The notes below the pieces were generated by a model that did not search any database, had not been told where the DNA came from, and worked only from the letters and a program-made list of their open reading frames with translations. Positions 13,091 to 28,715 of a DNA stretch of 31,616 nucleotides are shown piece after piece (the first letter of the stretch is position 1; every line of letters begins with the position of its first letter). The position numbers and the translations under genes were made by a program. The stretch is from Deltaproteobacteria bacterium. GTDB taxonomy: Bacteria; Desulfobacterota; DSM-4660; Desulfatiglandales; HGW-15. The DNA lies in the NCBI GenBank assembly GCA_016926135.1, contig JAFGPH010000512.1, positions 1 through 31,616 of the forward strand. The letters are read 5' to 3'.

Positions 13091-13845
13091 CGCACGCACT
13101 CCTCGTATCCGGATTGGCTGATACAGCCCAGGATCTCCCTGGGGTTGCTTACGCAGCTCAACATCCCGTTGTAGAGCACCTGACCCTTATCGGCCGCCAC
13201 GTAGTCCAGGATATGGCCCGTATGGGTAATAATGAGACCCATCTTGGTCCGCTCCAGCTTTTTCTGCATCTTGGGCTTGTTGTTCTGCTCAAAACCCATA
13301 TCCTTCTGGAGCAGCATGGCTATGGTTTTGCCCACCAGGTGAATGTTCTCCATGTCCACCCCGGACTCAGGCTCGTCGAATAGCATGAGATCCGGCCCCT
13401 GGGCCATGAGCTGCAGCAGCTCCGATCGTTTGATTTCCCCGCCCGAGAACCCCGCGTTCAGATCCCTTCCCAGAAAATCGCCGAAATTCACTCTCTTTGC
13501 CAGGTCTTCCTCATCGACCTTTTTCCCCCCTGCACAGATCTTGACCATCTGCCGGGTTTTGAGCCCATGAATCGTGGGGGGACGCTGATAGGACATGCCG
13601 ATCCCCAGTGCGGCCCTTTCGTTGATGGGCGCATGGGTGATGTCCTGTCCCTTGAAAATAATCTTTCCATCCACGACCCGGTACTGGGGATAGCCCATGA
13701 GGGTCATGAGGAGAGAGGTCTTTCCGGACCCGTTGGGACCGAAAAGGATGTGGGTCTCCCCGGGCTTAATCTCCAGGTCGATGTGCTGGAGGATCACCTT
13801 GTCGCCCAGTTGCACTTTCAGGTCTTCTACGATCAGCATCGCCAT
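13078..13845 (-). CDS. sufC: SufC ATPase of Fe-S cluster assembly
   Basis: This 255-residue ABC ATPase has Walker A FGPNGSGKTS near residue 35, signature FSGGEIKRSELLQ, Walker B LMLFDEPESGVD and switch histidine ITHTG. FSGGE followed by KRSE and DEPESGVD are diagnostic for SufC rather than transport ATPases. A lysine-rich segment (QNNKPKMQKKLERTK) sits between Walker B and the H-loop, as seen in minimal SufBC systems. The gene lies 16 bases after the MBL hydrolase and overlaps sufB. It works in the cytoplasm and drives opening of the SufB scaffold for cluster assembly. Confidence 0.92.
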   Translation of the reverse strand: MAMLIVEDLKVQLGDKVILQHIDLEIKPGETHILFGPNGSGKTSLLMTLMGYPQYRVVDGKIIFKGQDITHAPINERAALGIGMSYQRPPTIHGLKTRQMVKICAGGKKVDEEDLAKRVNFGDFLGRDLNAGFSGGEIKRSELLQLMAQGPDLMLFDEPESGVDMENIHLVGKTIAMLLQKDMGFEQNNKPKMQKKLERTKMGLIITHTGHILDYVAADKGQVLYNGMLSCVSNPREILGCISQSGYEECVRCIA

Positions 13846-13861: not shown

Positions 13862-14587
13862 TTATCTCAAATAAGGCCCCCACTGTCTGGCCGTATCCTT
13901 AATATACCCTTTTGGCAAACCCTTCACCACCCGGTTGTGTCCTGGCAGAAGGATGTCCACCTCCAGATCGGCCAGTCGCAGGAGGGACTCCTCCAGGACC
14001 GGGGCATCGGCCCCGTGCAGATCGAAACGGCCAATAGCATAGTCTGCATATACCACGTCTCCCGGAATGAGGATCTTCTGTTCCCGGTGGTAGAGGGCAA
14101 TGCCACCGGCCGAGTGGCCCGGAATGTGGATCACCTCCCAGACCATGCCCCCAATTTCCAGGCTCTCCCCCCCCTTCAGTCTCTTGTCGACGGGAAAAGT
14201 AAAATCCCCCGGCTTGAGGCCATACTGCATCTGGCACATGCCCTTGAACATGTCCATTCCGTAGACGGTTCTCTCATCGCCCTTCTCCAGGGGTTCGGCC
14301 TCCTGTTCGTGGACCCACAGCTCCAGCCAGGGCATCTCCTTCCGGATCTCGCCGAGGCACCCGATATGATCCAGATGGGTGTGGGTCATGATCACCCTTT
14401 TCACGTCCTTCAACCCGATTCCCGTTTCTTCAATGGCTGAGAGCTTGTATCGCCCCTTCCCCATAAGACCCGCATCCACAATAGAAAGGTCTCCCGACGA
14501 GGGATCGCCGATCACATAGACATGGGAATCGGGGATGAATTCATCCTGTCCGGGAATGAACTGCACTCCCTTTACAATTTCAGGCAT
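13862..14587 (-). CDS. MBL-fold metallo-hydrolase
   Basis: This 241-residue protein has the metal-binding motif THTHLDHIG (H69, H71, D73, H74). Further ligands are in PGHSAGGIALY, GDVVYADYAIGR and LPGHNRVV. The overall pattern fits glyoxalase II-like or quorum-type hydrolases acting on thioesters or lactones. Its true substrate is unknown. The start at 14587 is chosen because GGAGG lies five bases upstream; an ATG 45 bases earlier lacks such a site. It leads a three-gene operon with sufC and sufB, an arrangement that suggests a role in sulfur or thiol handling, though this is inference. Confidence 0.87.
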   Translation of the reverse strand: MPEIVKGVQFIPGQDEFIPDSHVYVIGDPSSGDLSIVDAGLMGKGRYKLSAIEETGIGLKDVKRVIMTHTHLDHIGCLGEIRKEMPWLELWVHEQEAEPLEKGDERTVYGMDMFKGMCQMQYGLKPGDFTFPVDKRLKGGESLEIGGMVWEVIHIPGHSAGGIALYHREQKILIPGDVVYADYAIGRFDLHGADAPVLEESLLRLADLEVDILLPGHNRVVKGLPKGYIKDTARQWGPYLR

Positions 14588-14799
14588 GTCCGCCTCCGTA
14601 GATAACCTTGGGGATAATAGAACATAAACCATCGGGCCCGCCTGCGCAAGGGGAACATCTGCCGGCTGCGGCCTGATGTCCGTGGAGCACGGATACCCGG
14701 AGGGGAGAGCGTTATTCTACGACCTGAACGAGAATGATCGAGATCGGGTTATTGATGTGTCAATAGTGATATATCATGCTGGAAACATTGATTTTTTAG

Positions 14800-14828
14800 T
14801 TGACTTGCCCCAGCCCCGCCGATACTAT
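14800..14828 (+). promoter_or_regulatory. Candidate promoter for the AOR cluster
   Basis: TTGACT at 14800-14805 and TACTAT at 14823-14828 are separated by exactly 17 bases, with a T-rich stretch just upstream (14791-14798). It points towards the AOR cluster from the divergent intergenic region and would give a leader of about 350 bases. Confidence 0.45.
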
Positions 14829-14964
14829 TCTGCCGGGCTGATATGGAGCCCACAGAAGGGGAATCATTCTTTCATCGCCGAGTCCGTCAGCGAATTCTGG
14901 TTTTCGTTTTTTGCCAAGGCGCTGCATCTCTTTCCGCCTCCCTCTGGGGTTTTTTCGGGTTGGT

Positions 14965-15150
14965 ATGAGCATTTCCGTCCGATACATCCTGGAGAATCCA
15001 TCATCCATCAAAGAGGATCCGTTTGCGCTCTCATGCAAGGCCCTCAAGCGGAAACGGTTTCTGTCATTAGGCCCCAAGAGCCACGGGGCCGCGATCAACT
15101 ACCGGGAAATCTTCCCTGAAAAGCGGGCGTTTGTTGGAGGCTTTCCATAA
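14965..15150 (+). CDS. Possible small leader protein of the AOR cluster
   Basis: This 61-residue frame starts MSISVRYILENPSSIKEDPF and ends 36 bases before the Tat ferredoxin. Codon third positions are moderately GC-rich and the sequence is basic (KALKRKR). The ribosome binding site is poor and no family is recognised. It may be a real small protein, a gene tail, or chance. Apart from this and the promoter, 14588-15185 shows no other feature. Confidence 0.3.
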   Translation: MSISVRYILENPSSIKEDPFALSCKALKRKRFLSLGPKSHGAAINYREIFPEKRAFVGGFP

Positions 15151-15185
15151 CATGTTCCGAAACAAAAGGAAACGGAGGTGAAGCT

Positions 15186-15899
15186 ATGGAAAAGAAGGAT
15201 GAATCTGTGACCCAGAAAATTTTACAGAAGGAGGCGACCCGCCGGACTTTTCTCAAAGGGGCACTTGCGACTGCAGGGGGGGTTGCAGCCTGGGCAGCCG
15301 GCGCAGGAGCGGGTGCACCCATTGCTTCGGCGGCCGCGCCTGCACCCAAGCCGAAGATGAAGTACCTCTTTGCACAACGGGAAAACTGCACAGGATGTCG
15401 AGCCTGCGAATACGCCTGCTCATTGAAACATGAGGGGGTGGTGCGTCCATCGGTCGCAAAGATCCATGTGCGGCGATACTACAGCGTGATCGATATCCCA
15501 GTCATTTGCTGGCACTGTGATGATGCCCCTTGCGTCAAGGCCTGTCCGACCACTCCCGTTGCCATTGTCAAGGACAAGGAGACCAACGCCATCAAATTCA
15601 TCGATGATAAGACCTGCCTCGGTGCAAAGTGCAACAAATGCATCGAGGCTTGTCCGGCAGGCTTCTTGCGCCGTCATCCTGACACGGGCTGGCCCATGTT
15701 CTGCGATCTGTGTGACGGAGATCCCGAATGTGTCAAAGCTTGCCAGGAGCAGGCCGGTAACCCCCAGGGCCCTTGCCTGAGTGCGGGCCTGGCAGGCTTC
15801 GGGGTCAACCTGGCTTACCGGGCGGTCAACCCTGATGCGGCCGCCAAAGCGCTCCATTTGAACCTCTTCTACCCGAACGAAAAAGGTGAAAGGAGGTAG
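15186..15899 (+). CDS. Tat-exported 4x[4Fe-4S] ferredoxin-type electron carrier (AOR partner)
   Basis: The 237-residue protein begins with a twin-arginine signal (TRRTFLK, R19-R20, then an alanine/glycine-rich hydrophobic stretch to about residue 50). Four cysteine clusters of the DmsB/HycB type follow: CTGCRACEYAC (68-78), CWHCDDAPCVKAC, CLGAKCNKCIEAC and CDLCDGDPECVKAC. Such proteins carry electrons for molybdenum or tungsten enzymes; similar ferredoxins flank AOR genes, as in the E. coli ydh operon. GGAGGTG six bases before the ATG fixes the start. The stop is five bases before the AOR start, with an AGGAGG site between. The Tat signal is odd next to an AOR with no signal of its own: either the AOR is co-exported or the signal acts as an anchor. 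Confidence 0.9.
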   Translation: MEKKDESVTQKILQKEATRRTFLKGALATAGGVAAWAAGAGAGAPIASAAAPAPKPKMKYLFAQRENCTGCRACEYACSLKHEGVVRPSVAKIHVRRYYSVIDIPVICWHCDDAPCVKACPTTPVAIVKDKETNAIKFIDDKTCLGAKCNKCIEACPAGFLRRHPDTGWPMFCDLCDGDPECVKACQEQAGNPQGPCLSAGLAGFGVNLAYRAVNPDAAAKALHLNLFYPNEKGERR

Positions 15900-15904
15900 T
15901 GGCC

Positions 15905-17722
15905 ATGACAGCACCGAAAGGCGGATACTTCGGGAAAATCCTTGAAATCGACCTCTCCAAAAAGGAATACAAAACGCGAAAGATGGAGGATGAGGTCTAT
16001 CGTAAATACATCGGAGGTGCGGGACTGGGCGCCTACCTCCTCTTTACGGAACTCCCCGCCAAGGCAGACCCCCTGGGCGATAACAATTTCATCTTCCTGG
16101 GGACCGGTCCCCTCAATGGAACCTATTGCCCTTCCACACGGCTCAGCATCGCGTTCAAGAGCCCCTACACGGGCATTTTCGGGCATTCCGAAGTGGGTGG
16201 ATCCTTTGCCAATGAAATCAAGTGGGCGGGATGGGACGGCATCCTGATCAAGGGCAAGGCCAGGCTTCCCACCTGGGTCTACATCCACAATAACAAGGTG
16301 GAATTCAGGGATGCAAAAAAGGCGTTGTGGGGAAAGGATACCTACCAGACGGACGATCTGATCAGGCAGGAGCTCAATGACCCTGAGGTGAAAACCATTG
16401 TCATTGGCCCGGCCGGTGAGAACCTTGTCCCTTACTCCTGTCTCATCGTGGACCGTTTCCGGGCTGCCGGGAGAAGCGGTGCCGGTTGTCTCCTGGGAAG
16501 CAAAAACCTCAAGGCCGTCGCCATCAAAGGGACCGGATCCGTGCCGGTGGTCTCGAAAGATCCATTCCATGAAGCCGCGAAGCAGGCCAAGAAATTGGCC
16601 GTTGATCTTGAGGGCTGGCAGGGTATCAAACGGTGGGGTACGGCCGGTCTTCTCGAACTCAAGCACTGGGTCTCGGGGTCCCTGGTGACCCGGAACTTCC
16701 AATCGACCTGGTATCCCGATATTGAGGAAATCGGTGCCGAGCAGGCTGCGCGTGTTTTCTGGAAAAGGCATGTCTCCTGCCCACACTGCCCGGTTCACTG
16801 CATGAAGATCGGCGTTATCCGGGGCGGAGATTACAGTGGGCTCGTTGCGGAAGGTCCGGAATATGAAACCGGAACCATGTTGGGCAGCAACTGTGGCGTG
16901 AACGACTTCAACAGCTACATCAAGGCCATCGAGATGTGCGACGCCCTGGGTCTTGACGGTATATCCATGGGCAACGTGCTCGGATACACCATGGAACTGG
17001 TGGATCGCAAGATCCTGACCTACAAAGACCTGGACGGGGTCGAACTCGAATGGGGCGAAACCAAGGCGATGATCGAGATGATCAATCGGGTGGCCCACCA
17101 GCAGGGTAATGCCGGAAAGCTTCTCGCCATGGGCGTCAAAAGGATGGGGGAGAAGATCGGCAAGGGTGCGGATTTCTATGCCATCCATGTGAAAGGCCAG
17201 GAAATCGCCGCCCACGATCCCCGGGGAGACAAGCCCAGGGGGGTCAGCTACGCCCTTGGCCAAAGGGGCGGCTGCCACCATGAAGGAAACAACGCAAAGG
17301 GACAGGCCCAGTGGGCCATGCTCAACTCCCTGGTCATGTGCTCCTTTGTCGGAGGCTACCCCTGGGGAAAGCAGACGCCGGGCGTATTTAACAAAATGCT
17401 CAATCCTCTCTGCGGTTGGAACATGACGGATGAGGAGTTCTGGACAACCGCGAAAAGGATCATCACAATTCAGAGGTGCTTCAACGCAAGAGAAGGCATC
17501 AACCGCAAGGATGATTTCCTGCCCAAGAGGCTCCTGACGGAAAAGCTCCCGGAAGGCCCAAAAAAGGATGCCGTAGTTACGGCAGAGGAAATGAAGAAGA
17601 TGCAGGATGATTATTATGCCTTCTATGGATGGGACGACAAGGGTCTTCCAACGGAAAAGACCCTGAAGGATCTGGGCCTGGATTTTGCAGTCGAACCTCT
17701 CAAAAAAGTGCGAAGTGCTTAG
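15905..17722 (+). CDS. Aldehyde:ferredoxin oxidoreductase family protein (tungsten/molybdopterin)
   Basis: The 605-residue protein has a complete AOR architecture. The N-terminal pterin domain starts GGYFGKILEIDLSKK and contains GTGPLNGTYCPSTRLS and GHSEVGGSFANEIKWAG. Also present are RAAGRSGAGCLLGSKNLKAV and the C-terminal cofactor region HDPRGDKPRGVSYALGQRGG. The 4Fe-4S ligands are C292, C295, C299 and C479. The family interconverts aldehydes and acids, or reduces aromatic rings in the BamB subgroup. The start at 15905 is set by AGGAGG eight bases upstream. No Tat signal is seen. Its neighbours supply ferredoxin, HdrA-type and NapH-type partners. The substrate is not readable; BamB-like function cannot be excluded. 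Confidence 0.93.
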   Translation: MTAPKGGYFGKILEIDLSKKEYKTRKMEDEVYRKYIGGAGLGAYLLFTELPAKADPLGDNNFIFLGTGPLNGTYCPSTRLSIAFKSPYTGIFGHSEVGGSFANEIKWAGWDGILIKGKARLPTWVYIHNNKVEFRDAKKALWGKDTYQTDDLIRQELNDPEVKTIVIGPAGENLVPYSCLIVDRFRAAGRSGAGCLLGSKNLKAVAIKGTGSVPVVSKDPFHEAAKQAKKLAVDLEGWQGIKRWGTAGLLELKHWVSGSLVTRNFQSTWYPDIEEIGAEQAARVFWKRHVSCPHCPVHCMKIGVIRGGDYSGLVAEGPEYETGTMLGSNCGVNDFNSYIKAIEMCDALGLDGISMGNVLGYTMELVDRKILTYKDLDGVELEWGETKAMIEMINRVAHQQGNAGKLLAMGVKRMGEKIGKGADFYAIHVKGQEIAAHDPRGDKPRGVSYALGQRGGCHHEGNNAKGQAQWAMLNSLVMCSFVGGYPWGKQTPGVFNKMLNPLCGWNMTDEEFWTTAKRIITIQRCFNAREGINRKDDFLPKRLLTEKLPEGPKKDAVVTAEEMKKMQDDYYAFYGWDDKGLPTEKTLKDLGLDFAVEPLKKVRSA

Positions 17723-17742
17723 ACCTGCGCGGTAAAGACTGA

Positions 17743-17790
17743 GGGCGGTTGGGGAACCTGGATAATTTCCCTGCCGCCCTGGTTTTCTTT
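17743..17790 (+). terminator. Intrinsic terminator or attenuator inside the AOR operon
   Basis: GGGCGG at 17743-17748 pairs with CCGCCC at 17774-17779, and GGGAA at 17752-17756 pairs with TTCCC at 17767-17771. The sequence after the stem is T-rich (TGGTTTTCTTT, 17780-17790). It begins 20 bases after the AOR stop and sits in the only large gap (149 bases) of the cluster, so it could make the ferredoxin-AOR pair more abundant than the genes downstream. Confidence 0.6.
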
Positions 17791-17871
17791 GGGTTACATT
17801 CCGATGTGTGGGAGGAGTTCATCGATTCAGGGAGGGATGGGCTTCTGACCTCACCGCAAGGATGCGTTGAC

Positions 17872-18567
17872 ATGTCCCTGACCAGAAGAGGCTTTCTCCA
17901 GTTTGTCGCTGCAGCCGGGGTCTCCGGCACGGTTTTCGCCCTGTTCCCGGTGGGCCGGGCCGGCGCTTTGCCTCGGCCACCGGGAGCCTTGACCGAAGAG
18001 GCTTTTCTCAGCCTTTGCAGCCGTTGCCTCCAGTGTGTCGACGTTTGCCAGCCCCTTGCCCTGAGACCGGCCGGGCTCTTCGAGGGGGTCGCCAATCTCG
18101 GTTCTCCGGTCCTGGACGTGAGCAAATGCATTATCTGTATGGAGTGCGTCCGGGTATGTCCCACAGGGGCACTGCAAAAGATCCCCAAAAAGGAGGTTGA
18201 TCTCGGCACGGCCGTGATCCTGAAGGAGATCTGCCTGGCATGGCAAAACAAGAAACGGTGCCGCATCTGTTATGAGGCATGTCCGACCAAGGCTATCGTG
18301 CTGGACAGGAAAAGGAACCCGGTGCTCATTTCGGAAAATTGCAATGGATGCGGCATTTGTTACCGAAAATGCCCGACAGAGCCCAAGTCGGTAACCATCT
18401 CCTACCAGGGGGCCAAGCGATTCGATCCCCCTGAAGGGCGATTTGCCCTTCGTCTCGAGGACCGGGTGGGACCGTATGAGTTTCCTCCCCCGGACTTCAG
18501 AACATGGTTTGTGAACAGGGTCAGAACCCTGGCGGAGAAATACGGCATCCTGGGAAGAAACCCATGA
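17872..18567 (+). CDS. Tat-exported NapG/MauM-type ferredoxin
   Basis: This 231-residue protein begins with a twin-arginine signal (MSLTRRGFLQ, R5-R6, hydrophobic to about residue 33). Four 4Fe-4S motifs follow: CSRCLQCVDVC (49-59), CIICMECVRVC, CRICYEAC with an upstream ligand, and CNGCGICYRKC. Spacing and layout match NapG, the periplasmic partner of NapH in quinol oxidation. The ATG at 17872 is chosen because it places the Tat motif at the N-terminus; the frame upstream is not protein-like. The stop overlaps the next start (ATGA). A NapH-like gene five genes on supports a NapGH-type pair. Confidence 0.88.
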   Translation: MSLTRRGFLQFVAAAGVSGTVFALFPVGRAGALPRPPGALTEEAFLSLCSRCLQCVDVCQPLALRPAGLFEGVANLGSPVLDVSKCIICMECVRVCPTGALQKIPKKEVDLGTAVILKEICLAWQNKKRCRICYEACPTKAIVLDRKRNPVLISENCNGCGICYRKCPTEPKSVTISYQGAKRFDPPEGRFALRLEDRVGPYEFPPPDFRTWFVNRVRTLAEKYGILGRNP

Positions 18568-19799
18568 AAGGGATCGGAGGCCAATCGGTGATGGTCGTGG
18601 GGGGCGGCGTCGCCGGGATGACGGCAGCTCTGGATTTCGCCTATATGGGGTTCGCCGTGCACCTGGTGGAAAAAAGCGATCGTTTGGGCGGCCAGGTGGG
18701 AAGGCTTGATAAACTCTACCCCACAGATCACTGCGCCTTTTGTCCTCTCTGGACGCAAATCATGCAGTGCAAGGAGAACCCCGGCATCACCATTCACACG
18801 AACACGGAAGTGAAAAGGATGGAAAGGGAAGGGGCCGGCTTGCAGGTGAGTCTTCTCGAGAGGCCTGCTCTGGTGGATGAAGGAAAATGCGTTTTCTGTG
18901 GCCGCTGCGAAACCCGCTGTCCTGTCCTTCCGGTCCCTGCGATCCGCCCTCTCAAGGGTCACGTCTATCCCCCTGTTTACGGCATTGACACGAAGACCTG
19001 CACGCTGTGTGGGGACTGCGAAAAGGCCTGTCCCACAGGGGCCATCCGATTGAAGCAGACGGCAGAGGAAGTGGTTCTCACTGTGGCGGAGGTCGTATGG
19101 GCCACCGGCTTTCAAGAGGCGGATCTTTCCCGATTCGAGGAGTTCGGTTACGGATCGCACCTCGACATCATGGGCAGCCTGGAGTTCGAGGCCTGGATCT
19201 CAGAGGGGGGCGCGAACAAGGGGGACATCCGAAGAAGGTCTCTTCCTTCGGTGCCCCACTCCATCGCCTTTATCCAGTGCGTGGGAGCAAGAGACAAAAG
19301 ACATCTGGCGCACTGTTCCGCGGTCTGCTGTATGCATGCCCTGAAGCAGGCCCACTGGATCCGCAAGAGGCGGCCGGAGATCCTCTGCACGATTTTCTAC
19401 ACGGACCTTCGAACCGTGGGAAAGAATTTCTTCGCTTACGCTCAAGCCTGCCAGGAGAACGCAACAATCGAGCTCGTCAGAGGAAGGCCTGCCTCTGTGC
19501 TTCCTTCTGCAGGAGGAAAAGAGATCCTCGTCTCATTCGAAAACACCATGACCCGGAAAGTGGGGCATCGTGGGTTTGACATGGTCGTGCTGAACGGGGC
19601 CCTGCAGCCGTCTTCGGCCCCCGAGGACATAGGGCGATCAGACACTTGGATCACTGGCTTGCCCAAGGGGGAGACCCTGCGTAGGGCCCCCCCTTTTACC
19701 TGCGGGTTTTGCAGAGAGCCCGCAGACATGATCGAATCCGTGATTCAGGCGTCTTCAGCGGTTTTGCAGGCTTGCCTACGCATGGAAGGGGAGAGGTAG
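18564..19799 (+). CDS. QmoA-like HdrA flavoprotein
   Basis: The protein has 411 residues, the size of QmoA. The FAD-binding VVGGGVAGMTAALDFA is at 11-26, with EKSDRLGGQ near 36-44. The HdrA cysteine region follows (C57, C60, C69), then two ferredoxin clusters: CVFCGRCETRC (109-119) and CTLCGDCEKAC (146-156). The later CSAVCCMHALKQA is typical of HdrA proteins. Known relatives transfer electrons between flavin and Fe-S clusters; in sulfate reducers QmoA links quinol to APS reductase. The ATG at 18564 overlaps the previous stop. No apr genes are here, so the partner is more likely the AOR. Confidence 0.88.
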   Translation: MKGIGGQSVMVVGGGVAGMTAALDFAYMGFAVHLVEKSDRLGGQVGRLDKLYPTDHCAFCPLWTQIMQCKENPGITIHTNTEVKRMEREGAGLQVSLLERPALVDEGKCVFCGRCETRCPVLPVPAIRPLKGHVYPPVYGIDTKTCTLCGDCEKACPTGAIRLKQTAEEVVLTVAEVVWATGFQEADLSRFEEFGYGSHLDIMGSLEFEAWISEGGANKGDIRRRSLPSVPHSIAFIQCVGARDKRHLAHCSAVCCMHALKQAHWIRKRRPEILCTIFYTDLRTVGKNFFAYAQACQENATIELVRGRPASVLPSAGGKEILVSFENTMTRKVGHRGFDMVVLNGALQPSSAPEDIGRSDTWITGLPKGETLRRAPPFTCGFCREPADMIESVIQASSAVLQACLRMEGER

Positions 19800-19804
19800 G
19801 ACAC

Positions 19805-21940
19805 TTGGCGCGTCTGGTCGTTTTTCTGTGCAGATGTTTCGGCGAAATCGAGGAGAATCTCGGTCTGTACGGGCTTCAAAAAGGGCTGGAGAAACATCCT
19901 CTGGTTTCATCCGTCTTTAAACGCGAATCTCTCTGCATGGAAGAAGACATGGATTGGATGGCCTCCCTGATCGGGGAGACGGCGTCGTCAACGGCGCTTG
20001 TAGCGGCCTGTTCTCTCCTGGCCAAGGGTGACACCATCCTCCGCGGGCTGTGGAAAAGGGGGATCAGCCCCTCACGGCTGGAACTCGTGGACCTCCGGGA
20101 AGGCTGCGCCTGGATTCACACGAACGATGAGGCCGGGGCAAGTCGTAAGGCAGCCGACCTGGTCTCCATGGGTCTGGAAGGCCTTGCCCGGAAAGCGAGT
20201 ACCCTGCCCGTTACAGGCCCGGTTGAGCCCACCGCCTTGGTGATCGGAGCGGGGCCGGCAGGATTGGCGGCAGCCTCCTCCCTGGCCCGCATGGGATTCA
20301 AGGTCCATCTTGTTGAGAAGTCTGAAAGGCCCGGAGGCCTGCTTCATCACATCTCGCGGCTTTATCCCGACAACCGGTCGTCTTCGGATCTCCTCGGGCC
20401 ATTCCTGCAAGACCTGAAGAACCATCCGCTCATGGCTTTTCATCCCGGATCACAGCTTCTTTCTATGCGAGGGGCGGCAGGAAATTTTGAAGTCACGGTA
20501 GGAGGGGCGGCACGAGAAATGACCATCAGGGTGGGTGCGGTTGTTCTCGCCACAGGGGCAGGCCTCTTTCTGCCTGAGGGCCTTTATCGGTATGGGGACC
20601 TGCAAAATGTGGTCACGCAGATGGAACTGGAAAAGAAGCTCACCGAAGGCACTTTTTCCTTTCACCATGCCGTCTTTGTCCAGTGCGTGGGGGCAAGAAG
20701 CCCGGAACGCCCTTACTGCTCCACCGTTTGCTGTCCCGCAACCCTCAAGAACGCTTTGAGGATCAAGGAAGTTCTGCCTGATGCAGCCGTGACGGTGCTT
20801 CATCGTGACATCATGACACCTGGAAGGGTCCTCGAAGACGGCTATAGAAGAGCCATGGGAGAAGGCATTCGGTTCATTCGGTTCCATGCGGACGATCCGC
20901 CTGTGATTCATGGAAACGGCCGGGCAGAAACCGTTTGCGTTCAGGATGTTGTATCGGGGAAGGAGAGGCGTATCCAGGCCGACATGGTGGTTTTGAGTAC
21001 GCCTCTCGTGCCACGGCCCGACCATGCGAAGCTTTCCCGCCTGCTCGGCGTGAAACTTGACCGCCATGGGTTTTATTGCGGCGGCGATCCTTCCCATCCC
21101 CTGGAGACGAGCGTGGGAGGCGTGTTCCTGTCGGGTTCCGGCCGATGGCCGGTGTCGGCGGAGCAGGCCGTCATGCAGGGGGAGGCGGCGGCCGCCAAGG
21201 CCGCTATCCTTCTTCGACAGAAAGAGATCGTCCCGTCCTATTTCGATGTGCTGCCCGGGCTTCCATCCTTCAAGGCCGAAGTCCGTCCAGCGCTTTGCTC
21301 AGGTTGCGGCGACTGCGTGGCCGTCTGTCCTTTTCAGGCCTGTCACCTTGAAAACAGGGAAGGCGTAACGGTGAGTGTCGTCGACGCCTTGAAGTGTCGA
21401 GGCTGCGGAAGCTGTATGGCCGTTTGCCACACTCACGCCATTCAGATCCCTGAACAGAATTCTTATGCCATGGTCGAAAAGATCAATCATGCCTTCGAGT
21501 CCGTGAAGGATGCGCCGGGTTTTCCCCGCGTGCTCGTTTTTGCCTGCCGCTGGTGTAGCCTCATCGGTGCGGATGAGGCGGGAAGAATGAAAATCGTCAT
21601 CCCCTCTTCTTTTCGTCTCATCCCCGTGGAATGCGCGGGCCGGGTGGAAAGTGAATTCGTCATCAGGGCTTTTGTCAATGGGATGGACGGAGTGGCTGTT
21701 CTTGGTTGCCACCAAGGGGGTTGCCGCTACGAGCGCGCCAACCATCATGCAGCGAGAAGTCTGGATTCGTTGAAAGCCTTTCTCGATTTCGTGGGAATCG
21801 GCGGAGAGCGGTTGCTGTTGAACTGGGGCGAGGCCCACGAGGCGCATCAGTTCGTTGGGCTCTTGTCAGGATTCATGGCTTCTCTGGAGGCATTGCCCCC
21901 GGTGCCCATAAAAAAGGAGCTCAGGAAATGGCTCGCATGA
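19805..21940 (+). CDS. QmoB-like HdrA-MvhD fusion protein
   Basis: This 711-residue protein has the QmoB domain order. An N-terminal HdrA segment runs from MARLVVFLCRCFGEIEENLG through AACSLLAKGDTILRG to LVDLREGCAWIH. The FAD domain has VIGAGPAGLAAASSLA at about 146-161. VQCVGARSPERPYCSTVCCP follows, then two 4Fe-4S motifs at C498-C508 and C531-C541. A C-terminal MvhD domain begins near 572 (ACRWCSLIGADEAG, VECAGRVE, LGCHQGGCRYERAN) and probably holds a 2Fe-2S cluster. The TTG at 19805 is preferred: it follows GAGAGGTAGG and yields a typical HdrA N-terminus; an upstream ATG inside the previous gene does not. The fusion would collect electrons from or deliver them to the QmoA-like partner. Confidence 0.9.
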   Translation: MARLVVFLCRCFGEIEENLGLYGLQKGLEKHPLVSSVFKRESLCMEEDMDWMASLIGETASSTALVAACSLLAKGDTILRGLWKRGISPSRLELVDLREGCAWIHTNDEAGASRKAADLVSMGLEGLARKASTLPVTGPVEPTALVIGAGPAGLAAASSLARMGFKVHLVEKSERPGGLLHHISRLYPDNRSSSDLLGPFLQDLKNHPLMAFHPGSQLLSMRGAAGNFEVTVGGAAREMTIRVGAVVLATGAGLFLPEGLYRYGDLQNVVTQMELEKKLTEGTFSFHHAVFVQCVGARSPERPYCSTVCCPATLKNALRIKEVLPDAAVTVLHRDIMTPGRVLEDGYRRAMGEGIRFIRFHADDPPVIHGNGRAETVCVQDVVSGKERRIQADMVVLSTPLVPRPDHAKLSRLLGVKLDRHGFYCGGDPSHPLETSVGGVFLSGSGRWPVSAEQAVMQGEAAAAKAAILLRQKEIVPSYFDVLPGLPSFKAEVRPALCSGCGDCVAVCPFQACHLENREGVTVSVVDALKCRGCGSCMAVCHTHAIQIPEQNSYAMVEKINHAFESVKDAPGFPRVLVFACRWCSLIGADEAGRMKIVIPSSFRLIPVECAGRVESEFVIRAFVNGMDGVAVLGCHQGGCRYERANHHAARSLDSLKAFLDFVGIGGERLLLNWGEAHEAHQFVGLLSGFMASLEALPPVPIKKELRKWLA

Positions 21941-21980
21941 CCATAAAGGCATCTGGCTGGACAAACCGGAGCGATGAACA

Positions 21981-22427
21981 TTGAGAGGTTCTCTTGAAGC
22001 GCGGATTTTCAGTAAAGCCGGCATCTATGGATGCGTGGAGTGCGGGAGATGTGTTGCTGTATGCCCGATGCAGGAGATGTACCCCCGGTTTTCCTTTGAG
22101 ATGTCGCCGAGGGGAATGATCAAGAAATGCGTATTTGATGAGGGTATCCTGACCGACGAGAACCTCTGGTATTGCACGGAGTGCAACGCCTGCACCGATA
22201 TCTGCCCGGAAGGGGTCAGCTGCCGGGACCTCATCAAGGGGCTGAGGGCCGAGGCCCTTGGCATGGGGATCCTGAAAAACGTCCGATTTTGTTCGTCCTG
22301 CCGTGCTCCCTTTGTTCCTGTGCCGGTGCTGGATTACGTTCTGCGACGGCTCAAAGAGAGGCGCCTGTCCACGATGGATCTCTGCCCCTCCTGCCGGCGG
22401 GAACTCTATCTGCGCAGAAACGCTTGA
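21981..22427 (+). CDS. HdrC-like ferredoxin with a zinc-ribbon-like tail
   Basis: The protein has 148 residues. Two HdrC-type 4Fe-4S motifs are CVECGRCVAVC (18-28) and CTECNACTDIC (65-75). The tail carries CSSCRAPF (104-111) and CPSCRREL (135-142) with a helix between. This pair of CxxC knuckles recalls the end of HycF/HyfH-like hydrogenase subunits and is not usual for HdrC. No membrane helix is present, unlike QmoC. The frame opens after a TGA at 21975-21977 and the only plausible start is TTG at 21981, with GGAG nine bases upstream. It probably passes electrons between the HdrA proteins and the membrane protein encoded next. Confidence 0.82.
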   Translation: MRGSLEARIFSKAGIYGCVECGRCVAVCPMQEMYPRFSFEMSPRGMIKKCVFDEGILTDENLWYCTECNACTDICPEGVSCRDLIKGLRAEALGMGILKNVRFCSSCRAPFVPVPVLDYVLRRLKERRLSTMDLCPSCRRELYLRRNA

Positions 22428-22436
22428 GAGGTTGAC

Positions 22437-23726
22437 GTGGAAGCAGCACTTCGTCCCAAACCGAATCAACAGTCTCCATCGCCGGCAAGGCGATTTTTCC
22501 TGCCCGGGCGAATGAAGCGGAGCCCGTCTCCCTCCCTGGTCTTCGATCCCGAAAAGTGCACGGGGTGCCGGACCTGTGAGATGATTTGCTCGGCCCGTGA
22601 AGAGGCATTCCTGTCGCCGGCTTCCGCAGGCATCCGCGTGATCAGGGACGAGGAAAAGGGAAAGGCCTTTGCCGTTTTCTGCCAGCATTGCCGCGACCCG
22701 GTCTGCATGGACGTGTGCCCCACCAAGGCGATCCAGAAAGGGGTGGATGGAATTGTCCGAATCGAGGGGAAGGCTTGTGTCCACTGCGGCCTGTGCGCCA
22801 TGGCCTGTCCGGAGGCCGCCCCCCTGGTGAATCCTGCTGACGGTCGAATCCACAAGTGTGACCTCTGCCAGGGAGATCCCGAGTGCGTGAAGCACTGCCC
22901 GGAAGGCGCCCTGGTCTTTTCCAAGGGCAGGGCTTTTCCATGGATTCGATGGGTCCGGTGGCCCGTGCAAGCCATCTTCTTCCTCCTCCTCGTGGTAGTG
23001 CTCGTGGGAACATTCTGTTCCCTCAGCGTAGGTGGATTCCAGATCTCCTGTCCCCTGGGGGTTCTTCAGAATATCGCTTCATCAATGACCTTCATCGTTC
23101 TGAGCGCTGCCTCCGGAGTGGTAATCATCCTTCTGTCCTTTGCGGCGGGCAGAATCTTCTGCGGCTGGATCTGTCCTTTCGGCTTTGTGCTCGACGTTGT
23201 GGGCACAGTGATGCCCAGAAAGAGCAGGTTGCCCCTGTTCCTGAAGGCGAGGGCAGCAAAATACGGCGTGCTCACCGCCTCTGTGGGCGGGAGCCTGGCC
23301 CTCGGGTTTCAAGCCTTCTGTCCCGTATGCCCCATCGGAACCCTCTGCCGCTCTTACGGCGTTCAGGGAGGCTTCTGGGGCTACCAGTTGGCCATTTTGC
23401 CGGCCCTCGCCGCTCTGGAGATCGGGGAGAGGAGGAGTTGGTGCCGCTATTTTTGCCCTGTTGGGGCATTGCTTGCCCTTGCGGCAAAGCTTGGGATGGT
23501 GAGGATTTTCATCGGGGCCCGGAAATGCAAGAAGTTCTCCTGCAAGCGATGTGCGGACATCTGCCCCATGGGCATTATCGATCACCGAAAGCTCCAGGAA
23601 GGGATATCGCCGGACCTTCCCATGGAGGAGTGCATTTTCTGCATGCGGTGTGTGGACCAGTGCCCTTACGATGCAGCGAAGGTGCGATTTCGCTGGTGGA
23701 AAGGGGTACCTAAGGAGGAAACATGA
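22437..23726 (+). CDS. Fusion of HycB/DmsB-type ferredoxin and NapH-type membrane protein
   Basis: This is a 429-residue protein in two halves. Residues 35-160 hold four ferredoxin clusters (CTGCRTCEMIC at 41-51, CQHCRDPVCMDVC, CVHCGLCAMAC, CDLCQGDPECVKHC). Residues 170-360 hold about four membrane helices (near 174-192, 217-240, 275-293, 341-358) with the NapH motifs FCGWICPFG and WCRYFCPVG. A ferredoxin tail follows (CKKFSCKRCADIC, CIFCMRCVDQC). NapH-type proteins oxidise or reduce quinone. The GTG at 22437 has GAGAGG five bases upstream; an internal ATG at 22512 is less likely. The fusion would give the cluster its membrane anchor and a continuous wire of Fe-S clusters. Confidence 0.88.
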   Translation: MEAALRPKPNQQSPSPARRFFLPGRMKRSPSPSLVFDPEKCTGCRTCEMICSAREEAFLSPASAGIRVIRDEEKGKAFAVFCQHCRDPVCMDVCPTKAIQKGVDGIVRIEGKACVHCGLCAMACPEAAPLVNPADGRIHKCDLCQGDPECVKHCPEGALVFSKGRAFPWIRWVRWPVQAIFFLLLVVVLVGTFCSLSVGGFQISCPLGVLQNIASSMTFIVLSAASGVVIILLSFAAGRIFCGWICPFGFVLDVVGTVMPRKSRLPLFLKARAAKYGVLTASVGGSLALGFQAFCPVCPIGTLCRSYGVQGGFWGYQLAILPALAALEIGERRSWCRYFCPVGALLALAAKLGMVRIFIGARKCKKFSCKRCADICPMGIIDHRKLQEGISPDLPMEECIFCMRCVDQCPYDAAKVRFRWWKGVPKEET

Positions 23727-25060
23727 CAAGGCCCCTTTCCCATTTTTACTCCATGCATATGGCGGTGGTGGATCTTTCTGCCGGCACGGCAGAGGTGCTG
23801 CCCGTTCCGGAAGATCTGATTCGGAACAGCATGGGCGGGGCCTCGGCGAATCTGGATCTCCTGGATCAGTACCGGAAAGAGGATCCCCTTGTTCTGGGGG
23901 TAGGACCCCTCACCGGGACCTTTGCCCCGGCCTCCGCCCTCATGGCGGCAACCTTCATAAGCCCCAAAACAAAAAGACCCACGCACACTCCCGTCCTTCG
24001 ATCAGCCGGCGCAGACCTCAAGTTCTCGGGCTTGAGCTTCGTGGTGATCAAGGGCCGGTCCCCGGGGCCTCAGGCCCTTTTCATCAGCCAGGGCCGTACC
24101 CGCCTGTTTCCGGCAGATGATTTGACAGGTCTCCAAACCACCGCGGCATGGAAGGCGTTGCGCCGCAAAATCCCCGACTTTAGTGGTTCTATTCTTCTCA
24201 CAGGGTGCGTGGCGGATCAAAAAAGCCCGCTGGCAGCCCTTTCCGTCGATCTTGGGGGCGGTTGGGACAAGAACGGCATGGCTCTCTGGATGCAGGCCAG
24301 AAACTTGAAGGCCATTCTCCTGAGCGGCACAGGCAGGCTTCCGGTCAGTGAGGACCAGATGGCCCATGCCCGGGTTTTGCGGGGTCGGATGGATGCCCGC
24401 TTACCTTCTGGAGAGAGGGTGTGCCTTGCGGTCCTGCGAAAAATAGACCCAACTTTCAACCCCGGGGCTCTGCGGCCCAACATGATGAGAAAAGACCTCG
24501 CCTGCTATCATTGCCCATTCCCCTGCATCAGTTTCGTGGGTGCCGACCGAGAAAAGGGGAAAGGATTTGTTCTTTTCGATCATATGGGATTCCTGGCTCT
24601 TACAAGGAAAAGCGGTTCCCTGGCTCCGGGCCTGATGAGGCTGTGCCTGGATCTGGGCCTCGATCCCGCCGCGGCGGCAACGTGCTTATCCGGTGACGAG
24701 ACCATGGAGCAAGCGAGCGAAGTGCTTCTGAAGCTTGTATCGGGCGAGGACAGCCTCAGGAGGCAGGCAAGGGTTCACGCAGAGCCCTCCAAGGGGTATG
24801 AACAGGTTTTTGGTGGGGGAATACCTGCGGTTCCAACGGACAGCGGGGAGCAGGGCTCGGAAGGGTGGGCAAAACGAGTGGCTGCGGCGATGATCTTGGG
24901 CATTTGCCCCTTGGTTATGCTCCTTTTTAGCGTCATCGACGAAAAAATGTGGATTCGATTTCTTTGTGATCAACAGGAGGGTGTATTATCTCTTCAAAAG
25001 CGGCTTGAATTGACGATTGACAAGGTTGTCAGCCGTGAAAATCCCGGTACCCTCCATTGA
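23723..25060 (+). CDS. Shortened, divergent AOR-like protein
   Basis: The protein has 445 residues, about 160 fewer than a full AOR. The N-terminal domain is recognisable (AVVDLSAGTAEVLPV, GVGPLTGTFAPASALM, SFVVIKG, LWMQARNLKAILLSGTG). Cluster ligands remain as CYHCPFPC (C261, C264, C268) plus a candidate fourth, C395 in GICPLVM. The GRSGAGCLLGSKNLK motif is altered to GGGWDKNGMALWMQARNLK, and the usual EYETGTMLG and DPRG...YALG segments are absent. It may be a non-catalytic electron-transfer or structural subunit. The frame is open and coupled to the preceding gene by ATGA, arguing against simple decay. It closes the cluster. Confidence 0.75.
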   Translation: MTRPLSHFYSMHMAVVDLSAGTAEVLPVPEDLIRNSMGGASANLDLLDQYRKEDPLVLGVGPLTGTFAPASALMAATFISPKTKRPTHTPVLRSAGADLKFSGLSFVVIKGRSPGPQALFISQGRTRLFPADDLTGLQTTAAWKALRRKIPDFSGSILLTGCVADQKSPLAALSVDLGGGWDKNGMALWMQARNLKAILLSGTGRLPVSEDQMAHARVLRGRMDARLPSGERVCLAVLRKIDPTFNPGALRPNMMRKDLACYHCPFPCISFVGADREKGKGFVLFDHMGFLALTRKSGSLAPGLMRLCLDLGLDPAAAATCLSGDETMEQASEVLLKLVSGEDSLRRQARVHAEPSKGYEQVFGGGIPAVPTDSGEQGSEGWAKRVAAAMILGICPLVMLLFSVIDEKMWIRFLCDQQEGVLSLQKRLELTIDKVVSRENPGTLH

Positions 25061-25600
25061 GGTGTTTTCTCTCTCGCGTTGAAGAGGGGACGTCAAATGG
25101 CAACTCCTCAATCCTCTTACAAGGACCCTCATTGATGAGGCCAAAGACGTGCTTTGAGCCTGCCAATTGGCGTCAGTTGGAGATGGATATCCGGAAAGCG
25201 GATACTGCCGCTGGAGGCTGAATTCCTGGAAGAGACAGCTTACGGTGAATTATGGAGGATCCGAGATCGGCTTGCGGGCCAAACGGCGTTACCATCCACA
25301 GATACACCATCTGGATGTAAAAACGAAGGGTTCTCTCAAGGACTGGATGACGGTTAGATTTTCAAGTCCGAGAACAAATTTGGTGTAGACATAATCAACA
25401 AAATGGATTTTAAGAAGCTTTTGGATACCAAGGATGCCCGCAAAGCCACAATCAGGCAGGTTGATGCCCCGGCCAAGGCCGTGGAGGATTTGGCGTGAGG
25501 GGGCTCATGAGTGTCAAGGCAAATATGCGACCCTTCATAATATGAAACAATCAGATCATTACCTGGGCGGGAGCGGTGCCCCGCGGGAAGTTGGTTGAAT
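25061..25600. other. Long intergenic stretch with possible gene remnants
   Basis: This is about 540 bases without a convincing gene, and it looks less GC-rich than the AOR cluster. It holds a short perfect stem, CCTCATTGATGAGG at 25127-25140, too weak for a terminator. At 25403-25498 a 32-codon frame (MDFKKLLDTKDARKATIRQV and on to a TGA) is protein-like, and the frame extends upstream to a TAG without a start. It is probably the tail of a lost gene. Confidence 0.4.
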
Positions 25601-26167
25601 ATGTACATCGCGGTCCAGATTTTGACGGTCGTCAGGATACCCCTGGCTATTCTCTTTGCCTTTGTTTTGTTGAACAGCCAAAAGTCTACCACCACACTCT
25701 GTTTTTGTGCCGTGCTGCTGGTCATAGGGGAGATGACCGACCTCTTTGATGGTATCCTTGCCAGGCGATCCAAGACGGTTAGTGAGTGGGGCGCCATGCT
25801 GGACCCGTACGCGGACAGCATCTCAAGACTGATCGTCTACTGGACTCTCGCGGTGGCCTCGCTGGCCAGCCCCATCGTCCCTCTTACCATGGCATTCCGG
25901 GATGTTACAGTGGCTTATTCCAGGATAGTGCTGACAAGGTATGGGGTTTCGGTTGCAGCCAAGTGGAGCGGAAAAATCAAGGCAGGCTTTCAAGGGATCG
26001 GGGCATACGTGATCCTCATGGGTCCAGTCTACTGGCAATGGACGGGTGAATGGACAATACCCGTCTTCTCTTGGATAATCATCCTTGTTACTCTTGGCTC
26101 CATGGTCGAATACATCAAGGCATCCTTCAAGGCCGTGCAGAAAAGCAAACTGAATCGCCTTGGATGA
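25601..26167 (+). CDS. CDP-alcohol phosphatidyltransferase 1
   Basis: This membrane protein of 188 residues (from the ATG at 25601) carries the complete family signature D-G-x2-A-R-x8-G-x3-D-x3-D: D50, G51, A54, R55, G64, D68, D72. Hydrophobic helices flank it. The family moves a phosphoalcohol from a CDP-activated donor onto an alcohol such as glycerol 3-phosphate, serine or inositol phosphate, at the inner membrane. GGGAAG ten bases upstream supports the ATG; a TTG two codons earlier is possible. The acceptor alcohol cannot be deduced. It forms a tandem pair with the next gene. Confidence 0.87.
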   Translation: MYIAVQILTVVRIPLAILFAFVLLNSQKSTTTLCFCAVLLVIGEMTDLFDGILARRSKTVSEWGAMLDPYADSISRLIVYWTLAVASLASPIVPLTMAFRDVTVAYSRIVLTRYGVSVAAKWSGKIKAGFQGIGAYVILMGPVYWQWTGEWTIPVFSWIIILVTLGSMVEYIKASFKAVQKSKLNRLG

Positions 26168-26924: not shown

Positions 26925-27944
26925 ATGACAATTCTGACAGCATTCTGGAGTGTAATTCTTAGAAACTGCCTGATCCGTCACCGTAATACACCCAGGACGC
27001 CGACATCTGTTATGATCGGCACGACCAATATCTGCAACTTGAAATGCTTCATGTGCGGGACAAAGGACAGTGCGGTCCCAAAGGGTTTCATCACCAGGGA
27101 TATGTATGAGCATGTAGTGAATCAATGCGCAAGAATGGGTGTTCGCAACATCGCACTCCACACTGTGGGAGAACCCCTCTTACATAGAGACTTGGTCGCT
27201 CAGATTGGCTATGCAAAAGGAAGAGGTCTGCATGTTTTCCTCAGCACCAACGGCCAGTTACTCACAGACGGGATGATTGAAAAACTCCTATCGACTGAGT
27301 TGGACGCCATTCGCATATCAATCGAGGGCGCCGGTAAGGAGACCTATGAGTCTGTCCGGATCGGGGCCAGTTTCGAGAAATTGATCGGGAACCTGGAGTC
27401 ATTAATGAAGAGAAGAACCCGAAGAGGGTCTTCCCTAAGAATATTCATCACATCGATACTAATGAAAAAGACCGTATCGGAGATAGCTCTTTTTTATCAG
27501 ATATTCCGCCCGCTTTGCGATGATATGTATTTCACGTTTCTCGCCAACCCGGGCAGGCAAGTCCCTGATATCGAAAATGACATGTACCTCAAGCAGTCGC
27601 AAGGAACATCGCCGTGTAGGCTCCTCTGGAACACCCCGTCGGTCAGTTTCGATGGTCAAGTCTCGGCCTGCTGCCTTGATTTCAACAATCAGCTCGTAGT
27701 CGGGAATCTCCGGGAACAAAACCTAAGGGATATTTGGCTTGGCCCGAGGTATGAGTATTTCCGAAGACTGCACAGGGAAAGACGCCTTCACGAGATGCCT
27801 CTGTGTGGTGAATGTAACAAGGATGTCAACTCGCCGCTCAACTTGCTCTTGTTGAATCTCAGGGCACACCTCCTTGCCTGTTCCCCTTCGTTCAGCGCCT
27901 TCATCTATAAAAGGCCTCGCATCTCGAGGATCCCGGAGACATGA
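26925..27944 (+). CDS. Radical SAM/SPASM protein
   Basis: The protein has 339 residues. The radical SAM cluster is CNLKCFMC (C37, C41, C44), followed by TVGEPLLHRD and ISTNGQLL-like segments (here LSTNGQLLTDG) and RISIEGAGKETYE. A SPASM-type region near the C-terminus has CRLLW, DGQVSACCLDFNNQLVVGNL and CGECN. Such enzymes modify peptides, cofactors or lipids by radical chemistry. The ATG at 26925 follows GAGGGTGG. The context of two phosphatidyltransferases and a DUF2062 protein suggests a lipid or envelope substrate, but this is inference; no precursor peptide gene is seen. Confidence 0.88.
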   Translation: MTILTAFWSVILRNCLIRHRNTPRTPTSVMIGTTNICNLKCFMCGTKDSAVPKGFITRDMYEHVVNQCARMGVRNIALHTVGEPLLHRDLVAQIGYAKGRGLHVFLSTNGQLLTDGMIEKLLSTELDAIRISIEGAGKETYESVRIGASFEKLIGNLESLMKRRTRRGSSLRIFITSILMKKTVSEIALFYQIFRPLCDDMYFTFLANPGRQVPDIENDMYLKQSQGTSPCRLLWNTPSVSFDGQVSACCLDFNNQLVVGNLREQNLRDIWLGPRYEYFRRLHRERRLHEMPLCGECNKDVNSPLNLLLLNLRAHLLACSPSFSAFIYKRPRISRIPET

Positions 27945-28026
27945 TAGCCGTATATCCCACCAAAAAACGGACATCTCTCCGAACGCAGATTCCGATTGCT
28001 GGCATTCCGACAGAACTGGTGCTCAC

Positions 28027-28575: not shown

Positions 28576-28587
28576 AAAGAAGAAAAC

Positions 28588-28624: not shown

Positions 28625-28715
28625 CAGAGAACTTTCATCTGTGGCATCATTCGTCACAGGGTGTACCAACGCATGGTTGACGTCATACCAGATATATCGT
28701 AGACCCCATTTGATT

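What the first reader, a model, noticed from the sequence alone, without database searches (positions are those of the whole stretch)
15186..25060. AOR joined to a Qmo-like HdrA module and a NapGH-like membrane module
Eight tightly packed genes (several ATGA overlaps) combine a tungsten/molybdenum AOR, a DmsB-type ferredoxin, QmoA-like and QmoB-like HdrA flavoproteins, HdrC, NapG-like and NapH-like proteins and a second AOR-like subunit. Known relatives: Qmo complexes of sulfate reducers, BamB-I of obligate anaerobic aromatic degraders, and ydh-type AOR operons. This mix matches none of them. Inference: a quinone-linked, possibly electron-bifurcating aldehyde/acid or acyl-CoA oxidoreductase complex.
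Basis: partly seen in the sequence, partly recalled or inferred. Interest (0 to 1): 0.82.

Follow-up and report, generated by a model that had tools for sequence, protein, structure and literature searches.

The report
Tungsten aldehyde enzyme wired across membrane
A conserved set of neighbouring genes in sulfate-reducing and related bacteria appears to connect an exported tungsten-type aldehyde enzyme, through a membrane iron-sulfur protein, to a flavin and (in relatives) formate enzyme inside the cell; this looks like a previously unassigned way of moving very energetic electrons across the membrane.

Summary
Eight co-directed genes at 15186-25060 encode: a TAT-signal four-cluster Fe-S protein, a full-length AOR, a TAT-signal NapG-like protein, a QmoA-like HdrA, an HdrA-MvhD fusion, HdrC, a HycB-NapH fusion and a slimmed AOR paralogue. 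The order is not unique to this contig: all 11 relatives that span genes 1-7 keep it. It is rare: 3 of 395 sampled genomes of the phylum, a lower bound.

Between genes 5 and 6 they carry FdhB (20 of 20 that cover the spot). A formate dehydrogenase FdhA is in 17 of 24 loci, with an in-frame TGA at the catalytic site in three. The window has neither there.

The AOR is unlikely to be BamB: it keeps the aldehyde-oxidising second shell (18 of 18), lacks the BamB Cys ligand, and D. widdelii carries this operon besides a real BamB. Genes 4 and 5 are not Qmo.

Best reading: a TAT-exported AOR wired by NapGH-like proteins to a cytoplasmic HdrA/MvhD(-FDH) module, with menaquinone a likely second partner. 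Function is inferred, not shown. Part of such a locus was probably drawn in 2009 for strain HRM2. New variant of a known kind.

The parts
15186..15899 (+). gene 1: TAT-signal four-[4Fe-4S] ferredoxin subunit (WorS/AorA-like), 237 aa; twin Arg codons 15240-15245
   Evidence: Pfam Fer4_11; best PDB matches WOR5 small subunit, AorA, WorS; RR motif in 10 of 10 distinct system loci checked (window included), 0 of 6 gene-1 homologues of other AOR loci
15899..17722 (+). gene 2: tungsten/molybdenum AOR catalytic subunit, 607 aa, no signal peptide of its own
   Evidence: AFOR_N and AFOR_C; PDB 9mqx 378 bits, 1aor 360, BamB 189; T248, Y322, E323, H460 at AOR second-shell positions
17872..18567 (+). gene 3: NapG-like TAT-signal four-cluster ferredoxin, 231 aa from the ATG at 17872
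   Evidence: NapG model 81 bits, under cutoff 269; twin Arg in 14 of 14 distinct loci (window included), strict pattern 13
18564..19799 (+). gene 4: short HdrA (QmoA-like architecture), FAD-type domain plus two [4Fe-4S] motifs, 411 aa
   Evidence: own clade in HdrA tree 100/100
19805..21940 (+). gene 5: HdrA fused to MvhD/FlpD, 711 aa from TTG 19805
   Evidence: FlpD 121 bits; HdrA of Hdr complexes and MvhD in PDB; MvhD is a separate ORF or joined to FdhB in relatives
21941..21980 (.). junction where 20 of 20 covered relatives carry FdhB, and 14 of 24 also FdhA; empty here
21981..22427 (+). gene 6: HdrC-like two-[4Fe-4S] protein, 148 aa
   Evidence: Fer4_8; HdrC models under their cutoffs, QmoC model 35.5 bits vs cutoff 300
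22437..23726 (+). gene 7: HycB-type ferredoxin fused to NapH-type membrane protein, 429 aa, 4 predicted TM segments
23723..25060 (+). gene 8: slimmed AOR paralogue (AORn), 445 aa; keeps the four cluster Cys, active site not conserved

Best explanation
The locus encodes one membrane-spanning redox complex. The AOR is exported folded, carried by the TAT signal of its Fe-S partner, and oxidises an aldehyde outside the cytoplasm. Electrons pass through gene 1 and NapG-like gene 3 to NapH-like gene 7 in the membrane. From there they go on the cytoplasmic side through the HycB domain and HdrC to the two HdrA flavoproteins and MvhD. In relatives FdhB-FdhA completes this module, so CO2/formate (and perhaps ferredoxin) is the low-potential partner and menaquinone at NapH the high-potential one. 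The window's version lacks FdhBA at this spot and must use another partner of MvhD, or FDH encoded elsewhere. AORn is a non-catalytic Fe-S or assembly subunit. Shown by computation: gene content, synteny, TAT motifs, AOR-type active site, FdhA catalytic site. Inferred: single complex, membrane topology, direction, quinone use, bifurcation, substrate, metal.
For: Synteny: 11 of 11 loci spanning genes 1-7 in order. TAT motifs on genes 1 and 3, none on the AOR, and none on 6 of 6 gene-1 homologues of other AOR loci. The sister AOR loci L021 and L022 (Negativicutes) have the same motifs, and L021 holds two tatC genes (L022 not scanned). AOR second shell T, Y, E, H kept in 18 of 18; PMC12096430 (passages) gives Thr243, Glu313, Tyr427, His448 as this shell in most AORs; Tyr427 is His here in 15 of 18, as reported there for one AOR. 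FdhA: TIGR01591 839 bits over cutoff 666; Cys or TGA at the catalytic position. FdhB: best PDB profile hits are FdhB chains of methanogen complexes, 142-154 bits, two of them also by fold from a weak model. MvhD and FdhB are one reading frame in L013, L014, L016 and L017 (coordinates), which links them physically. Cofactor or metal genes beside some loci: moaA after gene 7 in L133, L156, L157; TupA-like protein in L013, under its cutoff.
Against: No biochemistry. NapGH in nitrate respiration carries electrons outward from quinol (recalled), the opposite of the direction proposed. FdhA is absent from the window's locus and was not seen at 6 of 24 relatives, so formate is not obligatory. No HdrB-type CCG domain in the window's eight proteins, so the high-potential branch is a guess. 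AORn was not found at three loci with flank. Genes 3, 6 and 7 score under the curated NapG, HdrC and NapH cutoffs. TM counts of gene 7 by simple hydropathy vary from 3 to 6 over 120 homologues. The metal could be Mo.
Confidence: 0.48

Rival explanations
1. Periplasmic aldehyde oxidation feeding only menaquinone. NapGH-like proteins pass the electrons to the quinone pool; the Hdr/FDH genes form a second entry for formate electrons to the same NapH. No bifurcation: a shared quinone reductase for two donors.
For: HycB-NapH carries two ferredoxin systems on one membrane protein. FdhA is dispensable. FeS, AOR, NapG and NapH homologues occur without Hdr in Negativicutes loci L021 and L022.
Against: Both HdrA genes, MvhD and HdrC are kept in the 11 loci that span genes 1-7, which is heavy for a plain formate to quinone path.
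Confidence: 0.25
2. The cytoplasmic side drives the AOR backwards: formate or hydrogen electrons, boosted by bifurcation, reduce a carboxylic acid to aldehyde outside the membrane or at its face.
For: NapGH normally delivers electrons outward (recalled). AORs can reduce acids (PMC12096430 passages).
Against: Quinol is far too oxidising to reduce acids (potentials recalled), and I know of no low-potential route across NapH.
Confidence: 0.1
3. BamB-like acyl-CoA reductase: the AOR reduces an aromatic or other acyl-CoA and Hdr supplies the electrons.
For: Bam complexes also join an AOR-family subunit to HdrA-type subunits (PMC13328260 passage; L150). AU test does not reject grouping with BamB (p 0.209).
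Against: Thr248 and Glu323 are kept where BamB has Ser and Thr, and Val stands at the aligned BamB Cys322 position. 189 bits to BamB against 378 to WorL, while the BamB of D. widdelii scores 1241. A CoA ester would not be expected outside the cytoplasm.
Confidence: 0.04

Closest known systems
Class V (membrane-associated) tungsten oxidoreductases, e.g. E. coli YdhVY, Cetobacterium WOR41 (PMC13328260; abstract, passages, sections 12 and 16 seen)
   Same: AOR plus Tat-signal Fe-S subunit plus membrane partners; Desulfovibrio and Syntrophobacter are listed there as carriers; no function assigned to any
   Different: In the main text 'Hdr' occurs only for Bam (supplements not readable). The AOR here keeps the second-shell Thr and Glu, which YdhV lacks.
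Hdr-formate dehydrogenase complexes of methanogens (7bkb, 8rvu)
   Same: HdrA, MvhD, HdrC-like, and in relatives FdhB and FdhA
   Different: No HdrB domain in the window's proteins; joined instead to NapGH-like proteins and an exported AOR. FdhBA missing at the window's locus.
Class II benzoyl-CoA reductase Bam(BC)2DEFGHI
   Same: AOR-family subunit, HycB-type Fe-S subunit, HdrA-type subunit
   Different: Active site, TAT signals, NapGH-like proteins; D. widdelii carries Bam separately
QmoABC
   Same: Short HdrA plus HdrA-MvhD pair and an HdrC domain
   Different: No QmoC-type protein, 33% and 24% identity to D. widdelii QmoA and QmoB, outside their clade
hdrA/aor5-type locus of Desulfobacterium autotrophicum HRM2 (PMC2702500, figure legend and passages)
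   Same: The Fig. 4 legend on hdr loci lists Aor5, ferredoxin and Fe/S protein, and FdhB-FdhA at loci V and VI; HRM2 has a gene-7 homologue (P0302, 58%)
   Different: Treated as hdr loci; in the passages seen, no exported AOR, NapGH or complex is proposed. The figure was not readable, so the match is inferred.

Membership tests
Class V WOR | WorL plus WorS with Tat signal | tested here: met
   (motif only, no export test)
Class V WOR | at least one further, membrane-associated subunit | tested here: met
   NapG- and NapH-like genes in conserved order; physical association not testable
Class V WOR | large subunit in clade 41 (with YdhV) | tested here: inconclusive
   best tree separates them, AU p 0.298; second-shell residues differ from YdhV
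Class II benzoyl-CoA reductase | Cys ligand to the metal and loss of second-shell residues | tested here: not met
   with PMC12096430 passages
Class II benzoyl-CoA reductase | BamGHI (NuoEFG-like) genes | tested here: not met
   no such family among the eight genes; rest of the genome not held
Qmo | QmoC (HdrC-HdrE fusion) | tested here: not met
   gene 6 scores 35.5 vs cutoff 300; membrane part is NapH-type
Qmo | QmoA/QmoB inside the apr-linked Qmo clade | tested here: not met
   one reference only, aprBA-qmoABC of D. widdelii (L139; apr genes named by eye)
Hdr-FDH complex | HdrA + MvhD | tested here: met
Hdr-FDH complex | FdhB and FdhA | tested here: not met
   absent in the window locus; FdhB in 20 of 20 covered relatives, FdhA in 17 of 24
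Hdr-FDH complex | HdrB (CCG domain) | tested here: not met
   no CCG family in the window's eight proteins
E. coli ydhYVWXUT | cytochrome b YdhU and YdhW/YdhT | tested here: not met
   as best match YdhU and YdhW found only the E. coli ORFs; YdhT not tested
NapGH (equivalog) | score over NapG and NapH model cutoffs | tested here: not met
   81 vs 269 and 103 vs 234 bits

The most novel reading that the evidence does not exclude
A transmembrane electron-confurcating machine: very low-potential electrons from an aldehyde oxidised outside the cytoplasm are merged, at the HdrA flavins, with electrons from menaquinol to make formate inside. This would let fatty-acid-oxidising syntrophs and sulfate reducers pull electrons out of the quinone pool without ATP or proton-driven reverse electron transport. 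The FDH slot is exchangeable between lineages: present, moved, or lost as in the window.
Probability: 0.15. Interest if true: 0.88.

Novelty: new variant of a known kind. Interest (0 to 1): 0.64.

Why it matters
Class V tungsten oxidoreductases have no known function (PMC13328260, sections 12 and 16 seen). Here a member-like locus gives a concrete wiring diagram with named partners on both sides of the membrane. It occurs in a complete genome of a named strain, D. widdelii PP31, and probably in D. autotrophicum HRM2 (one homologue found). That makes the question testable. If the reading is right, it joins periplasmic aldehyde oxidation to Hdr flavin chemistry and formate in one complex, which bears on how syntrophs and sulfate reducers balance quinone-level and formate-level electrons.

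Tried and rejected
BamB: rejected on active site and on a separate BamB in D. widdelii; the tree alone does not reject it. Qmo: rejected. YdhV: 25% identity; clade-41 membership left open. A second AU test (ours + YdhV without Negativicutes) did not finish and was not repeated. AORn as a truncated N-terminal domain only: rejected; in the top three rows it aligns over 428-432 of 445 residues to chain residues 1-541 or 1-546.

The conserved HdrA lysine as proof of bifurcation: dropped, QmoA has it too. FdhB model: low confidence (pLDDT 67); its identity rests on the profile search.

The promoter and terminator scan of 14400-25800 gave nothing above shuffles. The RNA-family search of the window found none, nor did the tRNA search. 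The E. coli DNA search gave only short matches at E about 2.

Papers: searches showed no title or abstract start that describes the complex. I looked at passages of PMC13328260, PMC12096430, PMC2702500, PMC5109826, PMC13101534 and PMC10553843, plus the sections named. Most subscription papers are not held; the HdrA review of Appel and others (2021) was not held; supplements could not be read.

Rows dropped: loci L021-L080 were not counted as the system (partial or distant matches). Redundant copies L002/L136, L007/L133, L012/L138 and L020/L137 were counted once. L156 and L157 were not in the TAT count or the trees.

Limits: one search scored 4 candidates per genome in the rows shown and includes D. 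widdelii, its centre, as does, so these counts are rough lower bounds. One search did not list HRM2. AORn at L156 and L157 was sought by tblastn only, which also missed the one in L014; in D. widdelii the AFOR_N search of the whole genome found 12 matches, all in frames of 583-831 aa.
Full report
WHAT IS THERE. Eight co-directed genes fill 15186-25060: a TAT-signal Fe-S protein; an AOR with both AOR domains; a TAT-signal NapG-like protein; a short HdrA; an HdrA fused to MvhD; an HdrC-like protein; a HycB-NapH fusion; and a 445-residue AOR paralogue. Packing is tight with two ATGA overlaps and one 1-base overlap; the gap after the AOR is 149 bp. A separate AOR with a radical SAM/SPASM gene lies downstream.

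CONSERVATION. One pattern scan of 84,980 species genomes with gene 7 kept the best 80 of 416 confirmed loci. L001-L020 match along most of gene 7 at 47-62% (L018 is cut by its contig end); the rest are partial or distant. Record titles of L001-L020 are Deltaproteobacteria, Syntrophobacterales/Syntrophaceae, Desulfosarcina, Desulfobacteraceae, Desulfovibrionaceae and one 'Pseudomonadota' MAG. Four more loci came from whole-genome searches (L134 and L135, L156 and L157), giving 24 relatives without redundant copies. Eleven span genes 1-7, and all 11 keep the order. FdhB lies between genes 5 and 6 in 20 of 20 that cover the spot; four contigs start beyond it. FdhA follows it in 14 of 24, stands after AORn in 3, was not seen in 6 (two of these contigs end soon), and was not covered in 1. 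AORn follows gene 7 in 17, plus L014 by a weak match; it was not found in 3 with flank (D. widdelii and two of its family), and three contigs end first. Of the loci that cover the spot only the window lacks FdhB. The locus is rare: 3 of 395 sampled genomes of the phylum and 3 of 30 of the D. widdelii family, both counting D. widdelii itself; in the rows shown, one search scored only 4 candidates per genome. The protein database gave 222 gene-7 homologues at E <= 0.001 among 7995 candidates scored; the 120 listed reach down to E 2e-132.

THE AOR. Closest solved structures are WorL and P. furiosus AOR; BamB is last of nine. P. furiosus Thr243, Tyr312, Glu313 and His448 correspond to T248, Y322, E323 and H460. 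These four are kept in 18 of 18 system AORs and in both Negativicutes sisters, but also in most other AORs of the alignment. Tyr427 is His in 15 and Trp in 3. PMC12096430 (passages) gives Thr243, Glu313, Tyr427 and His448 as the conserved second shell of most AORs, reports Tyr to His in one, and says BamB and YdhV instead have a Cys ligand and lack this shell. At the aligned BamB Cys322 position the window has Val; BamB and YdhV lack the Glu and Thr. D. widdelii holds a BamB (1241 bits to 4z3w) next to HycB- and HdrA-type genes, besides this operon. In the tree the system AORs form one clade of 18 (100/100), with the Negativicutes loci as sister (98/96). The AU test does not reject grouping with YdhV (p 0.298) or BamB (p 0.209), so the residues, not the tree, carry this conclusion.

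EXPORT AND MEMBRANE. Gene 1 has a twin-arginine motif in 10 of 10 distinct system loci checked, gene 3 in 14 of 14 (13 by the strict pattern), window included. Six of six gene-1 homologues from other AOR loci have none; no system AOR with its start has a signal of this kind. The Negativicutes sister loci repeat this, with two tatC genes in L021. Export of the AOR by carriage on gene 1 is the likeliest reading, but it is a prediction. Gene 7 has four predicted TM segments in the window (3 to 6 over 120 homologues) and the two NapH-type CX3CP motifs (both strict patterns in 105 of 120; 14 of the other 15 have a close variant). That its ferredoxin ends face the cytoplasm rests on the NapH model (recalled).

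THE HDR AND FORMATE PART. Genes 4 and 5 fall in two clades of their own (100/100 each), outside QmoA/QmoB of D. widdelii. Both keep, in 28 of 28, the lysine aligned to K409 of 5odc HdrA. Its role near the flavin is recalled, and QmoA has it too, so it proves nothing about bifurcation. In relatives FdhB matches FdhB chains of methanogen complexes by profile (142-154 bits) and, from a weak model, by fold. FdhA passes the formate dehydrogenase model (839 vs 666 bits, L004). In L008, L010 and L011 a TGA stands exactly where the others shown have the catalytic Cys before His (NNVDHCARL-[C/TGA]-H), as expected for a selenocysteine enzyme; for three of the ten other genes the pattern printed nothing. 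In four Desulfovibrio/Mailhella loci (L013, L014, L016, L017) MvhD and FdhB lie in one reading frame (coordinates), which argues that they touch. One PDB FdhB chain (8rvu) is from a complex titled Elp-Hdr, so FdhB without FdhA may have precedent.

MECHANISM. Aldehyde oxidation is strongly reducing (about -560 mV, recalled). From the exported AOR the electrons can reach NapH in the membrane. From there the high-potential exit is menaquinone; the other exit is through HycB/HdrC/HdrA/MvhD to FdhB-FdhA, where CO2 is reduced, or the reverse with formate as donor. HdrA flavin chemistry could split or merge the two. Which of these happens is not decided by sequence. The window's lineage, with no FdhBA at this spot, needs another MvhD partner, or FDH encoded elsewhere; an assembly loss at 21941-21980 cannot be excluded because no genome is held. 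Some neighbours fit a pterin metal enzyme: moaA after gene 7 in L133, L156 and L157; a ThiF/MoeB-like gene in L013, L014, L016 and L019; and a TupA-like protein in L013 (160 bits, cutoff 400).

KNOWN OR NEW. The 2026 classification (PMC13328260; abstract, passages, sections 12 and 16) puts Tat-signal, membrane-associated WORs in class V, all clade 41, with no function known; its main text names Hdr only for Bam. Desulfovibrio and Syntrophobacter are among its carriers, so members of this locus may already be counted there. The HRM2 genome paper (PMC2702500; figure legend and passages) lists Aor5, Fe-S proteins and FdhB-FdhA at its hdr loci; HRM2 has a gene-7 homologue, so part of such a locus was probably drawn in 2009. 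Within the searches listed I found no account of the complex. I rate it a new variant of a known kind.

Noticed in passing
window 26925-30578: Separate downstream group: radical SAM/SPASM protein (best model W_rSAM_matur, 109 bits, cutoff 380), DUF2062 protein, and a third AOR (582 aa) related to one in D. widdelii (L143, 44%).
   Followed up: partly
L008, L010, L011: In-frame TGA at the catalytic position of FdhA, so TGA (selenocysteine) and cysteine versions of the same locus exist.
   Followed up: yes
L013 7147-8439, L014 1221-2702, L016 5420-8425, L017 7001-8467: MvhD and FdhB lie in one reading frame in these Desulfovibrio/Mailhella loci, a natural fusion of two cytoplasmic modules.
   Followed up: partly
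L021, L022: Negativicutes sister locus: TAT Fe-S + AOR + NapG + NapH homologues; in L021 also a YeeE-type sulfur transporter, an aminotransferase class V (cysteine-desulfurase-like) gene, an NAD(P) oxidoreductase-like gene and two tatC genes. No Hdr found. Another unassigned exported AOR system.
   Followed up: partly
L013 12350-18551: Mailhella locus without FdhA is followed by a ThiF/MoeB-like gene, a GltD-like oxidoreductase and an FeFe-hydrogenase-like protein with altered motifs (by eye), then a TupA-like protein: a possible swap of FDH for a hydrogenase-type partner. The hydrogenase-like gene was seen only in L013 among the 27 loci and the window searched.
   Followed up: partly
L151 3864-7168: D. 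widdelii has another HdrA pair that falls next to gene 4 and gene 5 respectively in the HdrA tree.
   Followed up: no
window 13862-14632 and 13078-13845, minus strand: Metallo-beta-lactamase-fold hydrolase and ABC ATPase upstream; among the system loci searched the first had only a weak 23% match in L002.
   Followed up: no
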